Source of the DNA: an uncultured Roseburia sp.
GTDB lineage: Bacteria; Bacillota; Clostridia; Lachnospirales; Lachnospiraceae
Direction: 5' to 3'
Length of the DNA stretch: 38,968 nucleotides
Assembly (NCBI GenBank): GCA_945787015.1
Contig: CALZGM010000027.1
Location: 1 to 38,968, forward strand
The position numbers were made by a program, and so were the translations under genes. Below, in pieces: positions 27,858-28,971 of this stretch. The notes under the pieces were generated by a model. That model did not search any database and was not told where the DNA came from. It worked only from the letters and a program-made list of their open reading frames with translations. Each line of letters opens with the position of its first letter. Position 1 is the first letter of the stretch.

Positions 27858-28682
27858 ATGAAAGTATATACCTGTTTTCCTGAAGGGAAAGCCAAAGCGC
27901 TCACTATGAGCTACGATGACGGTAAATTAGAAGATATCCATCTTTTAGAAATCTTCAATAAATACGGCATCAAGGGAACTTTTAATTTAAACTATGGTGA
28001 AATGCAAAAGGATCAGGCTAATCTTCCTCATCCACGCATTCCGGCAAATCAAATAAAAGAACTTTACGCCGGTCATGAAATTGCTACCCATACCATGACA
28101 CATCCAACCATTGCAAGATGTCCCTTGGTTGGCGTAGCAAGTGAAATCATTGAAGACCGCAAAGGCTTAGAAGCACTTACCGGATCTATCATTCGTGGTC
28201 ACGCTTATCCGAACGGTTCTTACAATGAAGAAATTAAAACCCTGTTTCGTCAGCTCGGTATCGCTTATGCCCGTGTCGTCGAAAAAACAGGATCATTCGA
28301 GCTGCCTGCCGACCCATTGGAATGGCATCCGACCTGCCATCACAATGACCCGGATTTAATGAAATATGCAGAATTTTTTGTAAATTTTCATAAGCCTCAG
28401 TATCTAAAGTTAATGTATGTCTGGGGACACAGTTATGAATTTGCAGACAGAGATAACTGGGAAGTTATTGAAAAATTCTGTGAATATATGAGTGGTCATG
28501 ATGACATCTGGTATGCGACAAACATTGAAATTATCGACTACATGAACGCTGCAAAAAATCTTCAGTTTTCTGCTGACTGTACAAAAGTTTATAATCCAAA
28601 TGCAATGAGCATCTGGCTGCAGATTAATAATGAAACTATCATGGAAGTAAAAGGCGGTGCGTTTGTGGACTTGAGTTGCTAG
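27858..28682 (+). CDS. polysaccharide deacetylase family (NodB-like) protein
   Basis: A 274-residue carbohydrate esterase 4-type protein without a signal peptide. Seen: the catalytic/metal aspartates in LTMSYDDG (about residues 17-22), the metal histidines in HEIATHTMTHP (about 74-84), and GHAYPNGSYNE corresponding to the third motif. The C-terminal part (from about 200) holds HDDIWYATNIEIIDYM, also typical. Family members remove N- or O-acetyl groups from chitin, peptidoglycan or related sugars; the lack of an export signal suggests an intracellular substrate. It follows trmB by 49 bases and may be co-transcribed. Confidence 0.82.
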   Translation: MKVYTCFPEGKAKALTMSYDDGKLEDIHLLEIFNKYGIKGTFNLNYGEMQKDQANLPHPRIPANQIKELYAGHEIATHTMTHPTIARCPLVGVASEIIEDRKGLEALTGSIIRGHAYPNGSYNEEIKTLFRQLGIAYARVVEKTGSFELPADPLEWHPTCHHNDPDLMKYAEFFVNFHKPQYLKLMYVWGHSYEFADRDNWEVIEKFCEYMSGHDDIWYATNIEIIDYMNAAKNLQFSADCTKVYNPNAMSIWLQINNETIMEVKGGAFVDLSC

Positions 28683-28697: not shown

Positions 28698-28845
28698 GTA
28701 AGTCATAAGAAGAGCAAGTGAGAGACCTGCGGTCTCTCACTGTCCGGTCGTCGCCGAACAGTAAAAAAAGAGAAAATCTATGGTCTTACAAATAAATTTG
28801 CAGACCATAAATTTTCTCTTTTTTCTTGCTCTTCTCATGACTTAC
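28698..28845 (-). ncRNA. structured element: 21-bp outer stem enclosing three hairpins
   Basis: Arms 28698-28718 and 28825-28845 pair over 21 positions. Inside lie hairpin A (28718-28740, 10-bp stem, TGC loop), hairpin B (28740-28761, 8 bp), and hairpin C (28764-28824, 23 bp with a 15-base loop, A-rich and T-rich ends). There are three mismatches, 28707/28836, 28744/28757 and 28778/28810. Each reads A with C on the plus strand but G with U on the minus strand, which favours a minus-strand RNA. Hairpin C can also act as a bidirectional terminator for the deacetylase gene and tRNA-Lys. No class name is recognised. A small inverted-repeat mobile element is the main alternative. Confidence 0.6.
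28764..28824. terminator. long bidirectional terminator hairpin
   Basis: AAAAAAGAGAAAAT (28764-28777) pairs with the T-rich complement at 28811-28824, and TATGGTCT with AGACCATA inside. A-runs and T-runs at the two ends make it suitable to stop transcripts from both sides: the deacetylase gene from the left and tRNA-Lys from the right. Confidence 0.7.
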
Positions 28846-28898
28846 GCGCAAAATAAAAGCCCCAAACCTGCATAAATGCTAAGCTTGCGACTTCATAG

Positions 28899-28971
28899 TG
28901 CGCCTTCAGGGGCTCGAACCCTGGACACCCTGATTAAGAGTCAGGTGCTCTACCAACTGAGCTAAAGGCGC
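28899..28971 (-). tRNA. tRNA-Lys (CTT anticodon)
   Basis: A 73-base tRNA on the minus strand. Seen: a 7-bp acceptor stem GCGCCTT/AAGGCGC with discriminator A, D-arm AGCTCAGTTGGTAGAGC, anticodon stem-loop CTGACTCTTAATCAG with anticodon CTT, and T-arm GGGTTCGAGCCC. CCA is not encoded. It has its own promoter at 28994-29022. Confidence 0.97.

What the first reader, a model, noticed from the sequence alone, without database searches (positions are those of the whole stretch)
28698..28845. Four-way-junction element whose mismatches all become G.U pairs on the minus strand
A 21-bp outer stem encloses three perfect or near-perfect hairpins in only 148 bases, using almost every base. There are three mismatches in about 62 pairs. 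On the plus strand each is A opposite C, and on the minus strand each is a G.U wobble. That asymmetry is what selection on a minus-strand RNA would leave. It lies 53 bases downstream of tRNA-Lys on the same strand, so it may be released from a tRNA precursor. I cannot match it to a known RNA class. The alternative is a small palindromic mobile element that also supplies a bidirectional terminator.
Basis: partly seen in the sequence, partly recalled or inferred. Interest (0 to 1): 0.8.

Follow-up and report, generated by a model that had tools for sequence, protein, structure and literature searches.

The report
Four-way-junction RNA repeat of Lachnospiraceae
A 148-base stretch after a transfer-RNA gene folds into a four-armed structure and belongs to a family of structured repeats, apparently not described before, that Lachnospiraceae bacteria carry beside their genes, mostly in the direction of transcription, which suggests that it acts in the RNA.

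Summary
Window 28698-28845 folds on the minus strand into a 21-bp outer stem around three hairpins (66 pairs in 148 nt, -90.6 kcal/mol, z -15.8). The G.U asymmetry is real, but in one copy it proves little. blastn finds no whole homologue. Shared hairpin pieces led to a covariance model, built without the window, that finds the window's minus strand at 70.7 bits (E 1.2e-16). Members of at least 50 bits occur in 30 of 62 genomes of its genus; beyond its family there was one weak match. Rfam has no match. Covariation is very strong. Sense-strand G.U pairs exceed antisense 172 to 62 in 69 non-redundant members, and a tandem G.A motif is conserved. Outside one amplified genome, members between co-directional genes point with them 38 times, against them 3. 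One subfamily looks mobile: inverted ends, 8-bp target duplications. Best reading: a new family of RNA-active, MITE/BIME-like repeats; here probably a shared transcript-end structure between tRNA-Lys and a convergent deacetylase gene. Transcription was not shown.

The parts
28825..28845 (-). outer stem, 5' arm (21 nt)
   Evidence: fold; the two arms are each other's inverted repeat
28764..28824 (-). hairpin 1, 61 nt, A-rich 5' arm and U-rich 3' arm
   Evidence: fold; models R1 and R2
28785..28803 (-). tip of hairpin 1, CTGCAAATTTATTTGTAAG, shared with elements of other genera
   Evidence: pattern search and contexts
28739..28762 (-). hairpin 2, 24 nt
   Evidence: fold
28720..28738 (-). hairpin 3, 19 nt; fully Watson-Crick here, without the tandem G.A of most members
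   Evidence: fold; family consensus
28698..28718 (-). outer stem, 3' arm (21 nt)
   Evidence: fold
28707..28836 (-). match to family model R2, 70.7 bits, whole model
28850..28894 (-). terminator-like hairpin and T tract that follows tRNA-Lys, before the element
28898..28971 (-). tRNA-Lys (CTT)
27858..28682 (+). polysaccharide deacetylase gene, convergent; its stop is 15 bases from the element

Best explanation
The element is a divergent member of a dispersed family of repeats of about 120-150 nt in Lachnospiraceae whose sense strand folds into a compact four-way junction: outer stem, long A/U-rich hairpin 1, short hairpin 2, and hairpin 3 with a tandem G.A site in most members. The family spreads at least in one lineage as a miniature inverted-repeat element, and copies sit beside genes, mostly in the direction of transcription and often a few bases after a stop codon. 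Shown: membership, covariation, strand asymmetry, orientation, target duplications in one subfamily. Inferred: it acts as part of the transcript, as ERIC, Correia/NEMIS and BIME repeats are reported to do. In this window it would give read-through from tRNA-Lys and the convergent deacetylase transcript a shared, very stable 3' end (back-up terminator or barrier to 3'-5' exonucleases). My estimates: membership 0.95, RNA-level selection 0.85, transcript-end role at this place 0.5.
For: R2, built from six elements of other genera, finds the window at E 1.2e-16 on the minus strand. Covariation score 0.75 against 0.20 shuffled and at most 0.13 slid; 92% of cells paired against 60% shuffled. G.U sense 172, antisense 62 in 69 members under 75% identity; 51 members against 7, 11 ties; sense strand more stable in 67 of 69. 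Conserved tandem GA/GA at 82-86%. Orientation: 38 against 3 outside G361, 26 against 0 in the own genus. A same-strand gene ends within 20 nt upstream in 41 of 100 members; an opposite-strand gene starts that close in none. 8-bp target duplications in G361: 110 of 192 positions, permuted mean 77.9, 0 of 10000. Between convergent genes in the window.
Against: No expression data. The alignment was fitted to the model, which leans to the structure. Transcription-linked C-to-T mutation could cause part of the G.U excess. This copy lacks the tandem G.A and shows no target duplication. The terminator scan flags hairpin 3, not hairpin 1. At rubrerythrin the element follows the stop directly in 2 of 30 loci examined, and its presence there does not cluster on a poorly resolved gene tree. 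In G361 orientation is not biased (13 against 8). Orthologous sites are counted more than once.
Confidence: 0.6

Rival explanations
1. A DNA-level mobile palindrome (MITE) without RNA function. The arms stay matched because template switching in replication repairs palindromes, and copies collect at gene ends because insertions are tolerated there.
For: Inverted ends and 8-bp target duplications in G361; many similar dispersed copies there, best matches often 85-95% identical; similar palindromes in the own genome, one with a perfect 8-bp duplication; patchy presence at single sites.
Against: Palindrome repair does not predict the G.U excess of one strand, the conserved non-Watson-Crick tandem G.A or the orientation bias. 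No autonomous relative was seen beside 15 of the end sequences looked at, which does not rule one out.
Confidence: 0.2
2. A dedicated regulatory RNA whose junction and tandem G.A site bind a protein or ligand; its position in leaders and 3' ends sets gene expression.
For: Conserved unpaired bases in a four-way junction; several G021 members follow a TATAAT and precede a gene.
Against: No common function among neighbouring genes is apparent by eye; several sites are patchy; the window copy lacks the G.A site.
Confidence: 0.1
3. A DNA structure such as a cruciform or a gyrase site that acts in double-stranded DNA at gene ends.
For: Long palindromes beside gene ends; this is one of the roles proposed for REP repeats (abstract of PMC3733652 in the listing).
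Against: G.U against A.C asymmetry and orientation bias are not expected from a symmetric DNA role.
Confidence: 0.06
4. A small RNA released from the tRNA-Lys precursor.
For: Same strand, 52 bases downstream; 5 of the 102 placements listed have a tRNA as nearest upstream gene (tRNA-Lys twice, tRNA-Thr three times).
Against: Protein genes are the usual neighbours; the tRNA has a terminator-like hairpin before the element; 29 other genus loci at this site lack it.
Confidence: 0.02

Closest known systems
RNA-active bacterial MITEs: ERIC and Correia/NEMIS (passages of PMC2229807, and PMC10969869)
   Same: Size about 100-200 bp, inverted ends, transcripts with long stem-loops, dispersed beside genes; orientation matters for ERIC; target duplications in one subfamily here.
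   Different: A four-way junction with three hairpins and a tandem G.A site, and a different host lineage. No RNase effect has been tested here. Sequence homology to these repeats was not tested directly.
REP/BIME repeats (PMC3733652: listing and one passage)
   Same: Palindromic, extragenic, often touching stop codons; some members here have CTAC/GTAG at their edges, e.g. L203 and L255.
   Different: REPs are 20-40 bp palindromes in high copy number; here one unit is about 120-150 nt, with few to 37 matches per genome. A RAYT transposase was not sought.
Pneumococcal BOX, RUP and SPRITE repeats (passages of PMC3049150)
   Same: Small interspersed repeats with strong RNA folds, co-transcribed in part and thought to affect neighbouring transcripts; SPRITE resembles terminators.
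   Different: Other lineage; the four-way junction with the tandem G.A site was not seen in the passages read.
Intrinsic (bidirectional) terminator
   Same: Hairpin 1 has an A-rich 5' arm and a U-rich 3' arm here and in the consensus; it lies between convergent genes.
   Different: Outer stem, hairpins 2 and 3 and their covariation are not needed for termination; several own-genus members (L244-L246) lack a U tract by eye and some lie in what look like leaders or operons.

Membership tests
Four-way-junction family defined here (model R2) | Whole-model match in the sense orientation by a model not trained on the window | tested here: met
   70.7 bits, E 1.2e-16, positions 1-125; plus strand 30.6 bits
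Four-way-junction family defined here (model R2) | Tandem G.A site in hairpin 3 | tested here: not met
   The window's hairpin 3 is fully paired; 82-86% of the non-redundant members keep the bases. I treat it as frequent, not as required.
MITE | Terminal inverted repeats, no gene inside | tested here: met
   21-bp inverted arms; no open reading frame of 60 aa or more lies inside 28698-28845
MITE | Target-site duplication | tested here: not met
   Window flanks TTTTGCGC and AAGACTAG do not match. Met for the G361 subfamily: 24 of its 35 elements tested. I therefore do not file this copy as a proven MITE.
MITE | Related autonomous element | tested here: inconclusive
   15 loci with GTAACTATTCAG ends in G361 read by open frames and eye only; no transposase recognised
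REP/BIME | 20-40 bp palindromic unit in high copy number | tested here: not met
   Unit of 148 nt here; blastn finds one copy in the genome
REP/BIME | RAYT transposase in the genome | not tested
   No search made
Any Rfam 15 family | Match at the gathering score, or a credible weaker match | tested here: not met
   Window at gathering scores: tRNA only. Own locus and 19 other loci down to E 1: only tRNA above gathering, nothing credible at the elements
Intrinsic terminator | GC-rich stem followed by a T tract | tested here: inconclusive
   The scan lists two overlapping sites at hairpin 3 on the minus strand (0.4 expected), none at hairpin 1

The most novel reading that the evidence does not exclude
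A lineage-wide RNA device of Lachnospiraceae: a four-way junction with a conserved tandem G.A site that is recognised by a host factor (a nuclease or an RNA-binding protein), is carried from gene to gene by mobile ends, and sets the fate of whichever transcript it joins, in leaders, between genes and at 3' ends.
Probability: 0.2. Interest if true: 0.85.

Novelty: new variant of a known kind. Interest (0 to 1): 0.68.

Why it matters
If right, genomes of a dominant gut family carry a structured RNA repeat family that sequence search alone misses (blastn found one whole copy; the structure model found the family). It would show how a mobile repeat becomes part of transcripts, and an Rfam-type model would let RNA-seq ends, processing and mRNA stability in Lachnospiraceae be read with it.

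Tried and rejected
blastn of the element against phages and plasmids: no match. Viral contigs: outer-arm pattern 0 stretches; tip motif 8 stretches, whose folds show no multi-hairpin element around the tip by eye, judged chance. One weak genus blastn hit (G018) shows no element and was judged chance. Of the 28 places with the tip motif at up to one mismatch in 397 family genomes, 6 lie in multi-hairpin elements (G000, G095 twice, G176 twice, G362) and one in a simple tRNA-operon terminator (L077); the others show no such element by eye, and several look protein-coding. The tip pattern in genome contigs gave 5 stretches: 3 elements (L102, L103, L105) and 2 judged chance (L101, L104).

Alignments A2 and A3 of whole elements misaligned hairpin 3 and were dropped for A4. 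Hairpin 1 alone, six rows, gave modest covariation, and the +1 slide scored as high (0.283 against 0.253); the case rests. Strong vertical conservation at rubrerythrin was rejected: among the 30 loci held of the matches in 100 of 120 genomes, 2 have the element directly after the stop; a third weak match there (L318, 20.7 bits) reads as a plain hairpin. The tree of 36 rubrerythrin genes does not resolve: 8 element-bearing rows need 6 changes, shuffled mean 7.3, 71 of 500 as low. The outside-family match in G483 (35.0 bits over 80 nt) was taken as a long-hairpin match. The own-genome GTAACTATTCAG elements resemble the architecture by fold only; R2 lists no match in their loci at E up to 1.

Papers: searches of the open library listed no report of this family that I recognised. 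PMC3733652, PMC10969869, PMC2229807 and PMC3049150 were seen as listings and passages; other papers as listings only.

Rows dropped: the 99 elements leave out the antisense matches, the second L120 copy and the duplicates L142 and L144; L102 and L103 were added. L142 and L144 were also dropped, which leaves 100 placements. G361 matches above E 1e-7 were not aligned. Four alignment rows under 100 nt were left out. Of the G361 elements only the 24 with recognisable GTAAC ends were tested for duplications.

Full report
Observation. Window 28698-28845 folds on the minus strand into one 21-bp stem around three hairpins at -90.6 kcal/mol, far beyond shuffles; the plus strand is 13.8 kcal/mol weaker. 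There are 66 pairs, 4 of them G.U, and 16 unpaired bases. tRNA-Lys(CTT) ends 52 bases upstream on the same strand, with its own terminator-like hairpin between. A plus-strand polysaccharide deacetylase gene ends 15 bases from the other side.

From one sequence to a family. In the own genome blastn finds one copy of the sequence. In 62 genomes of the genus it finds the window and one hit that I judge chance. In 397 family genomes it finds short matches in 10, the own genome included. Among them, in G176, the tip of the long hairpin recurs inside another outer stem with further hairpins. A tip pattern then showed whole elements in G095 and G362. A covariance model of hairpin 1 (R1) matched 48 of 397 family genomes at E up to 1e-3. 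Automatic folding of 31 such loci gave an outer stem with hairpin 1 first and three branches in 25; in two of these (L117, L135) I find the junction doubtful.

Membership test. Model R2 was built from six elements of other genera, without the window. It finds the window's minus strand at 70.7 bits, E 1.2e-16, over its whole length; the plus strand reaches 30.6 bits. In the genus 41 of 62 genomes have a match at E up to 1e-3, and by my count of the listing 30 of 62 have one of at least 50 bits. The own genome has four further places, one of them weak at 30.6 bits. All of 30 genomes chosen because they had shown elements or pieces match, with 37 matches in G361 and 13 each in G204 and G293; these counts include antisense and partial matches. 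Of 249 genomes drawn from the phylum 5 match at E up to 1e-5: four belong to the window's own family, itself included, and the fifth (35 bits over 80 nt) is weak. How many of the 249 are of that family is not shown, and this search used the stricter filters. Rfam 15 has no matching family.

Is it RNA? Four results point to the sense strand. First, the fold covaries: 92% of cells paired against 60% shuffled, 1457 doubly changed cells against 408, covariation score 0.75 against 0.20, slid versions at most 0.13. The alignment was fitted to the model, which leans that way, and a few of its rows are antisense matches. Second, G.U pairs: 250 sense against 112 antisense in 99 elements, and 172 against 62 in 69 members under 75% identity, with 51 members against 7 and 11 ties; in hairpin 1 alone 95 against 24. 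Third, unpaired bases are conserved, above all a tandem GA/GA in hairpin 3 at 82-86% and a G in the loop of hairpin 2 at 97%. Fourth, outside G361, members between two co-directional genes run with them 38 times and against them 3 times; in the own genus 26 to 0; in G361 13 to 8. Genes there are open reading frames called by a simple script, and orthologous sites count more than once. A strand-biased mutation process could explain part of the G.U excess, but not the tandem G.A.

Where it sits. A same-strand gene or tRNA ends within 20 nt upstream in 41 of 100 members, an opposite-strand gene starts that close in none, and a convergent gene ends within 35 nt downstream in 10. Recurrent neighbours, named by eye from their C-termini, are rubrerythrin (the element 5 nt after the stop in six members), groEL, tuf and tRNA-Thr. 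The rubrerythrin site is patchy, however: 2 of the 30 loci examined carry the element directly after the stop, and presence does not cluster on a poorly resolved gene tree. At the window's own site 44 of 62 genus genomes have the neighbouring peptidase; of the 30 loci held only the window has the element beside the tRNA, though 28 of the other 29 keep a tRNA-Lys there. In one of them (L035) only 148 bases beyond the tRNA were held. Several G021 members follow a TATAAT, and three loci in three species precede what looks by eye like mutS2, so some copies seem to lie in leaders.

Mobility. Most G361 copies have their best match inside G361, often at 85-95% identity, and many share ends GTAACTATTCAG/CTGAATAGTTAC. 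The 8-nt flanks of 24 of its 35 elements agree in 110 of 192 positions against 77.9 in permutations, 0 of 10000 as high; two are perfect. The window's genome holds four GTAACTATTCAG pairs; three enclose 196-197 bp that fold into an outer stem with inner hairpins in a similar arrangement, one with a perfect 8-bp duplication. R2 does not list these. The window's own ends begin GTAA and end TTAC but show no duplication, so how this copy arrived is open. From memory, GTAA ends with 8-bp duplications recall IS66-type elements; this was not tested.

Mechanism. I commit to an RNA-active, mobile-derived repeat. When transcribed in sense it gives the transcript a very stable junction that can form or protect an end; at this locus it would serve tRNA-Lys read-through and the convergent deacetylase message. 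Against a plain terminator: the scan flags hairpin 3 rather than hairpin 1, and some members seem to lie in leaders or operons. Published analogues (ERIC, Correia/NEMIS, BIME, BOX) are reported to affect the transcripts that hold them, by the passages read. The step from structure to function is inference; no expression data were at hand.

Verdict. As a kind it stands beside known RNA-active MITEs; as a family with this architecture I found no report in the searches made and no Rfam entry.

Noticed in passing
L277, L281, L285 (own genome, contigs C13, C35, C47); L273 (C8): Palindromic elements with ends GTAACTATTCAG/CTGAATAGTTAC: three of 196-197 bp that fold into an outer stem with inner hairpins, one with a perfect 8-bp flanking repeat (TTTAATTT), and a 75-bp short form.
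   Followed up: partly
L202, L119, L204, L246 (downstream of the elements): Partial repeats of the hairpin 2/hairpin 3 module follow several elements, as if units were built as mosaics.
   Followed up: no
L242, L244-L246, L250, L251, L253 (genome G021): A TATAAT lies just upstream of several elements, and genes follow in the same direction; these may be structured leaders.
   Followed up: no
L064 and L071 (genome G287): Two contigs share the exact 23-bp hairpin sequence GAGACCTGCGGTCTCTCACTGTC with the window's hairpin 3 region, in other structured surroundings.
   Followed up: no
L054, downstream of tRNA-Lys (genome G008): At the same tRNA-Lys site another relative has a different run of nested palindromes after the tRNA terminator, which R2 does not match.
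   Followed up: partly
L276, L282, L284, L292 (genome G361): Very short forms (about 40-94 bp) hold little more than the two inverted ends GTAACTATTCAG/CTGAATAGTTAC, like internal deletions of the mobile form.
   Followed up: no
L077 (genome G360), after a tRNA-Arg: A simple tRNA-operon terminator carries the same hairpin tip TGCAAATTTATTTGCA without the other hairpins.
   Followed up: no
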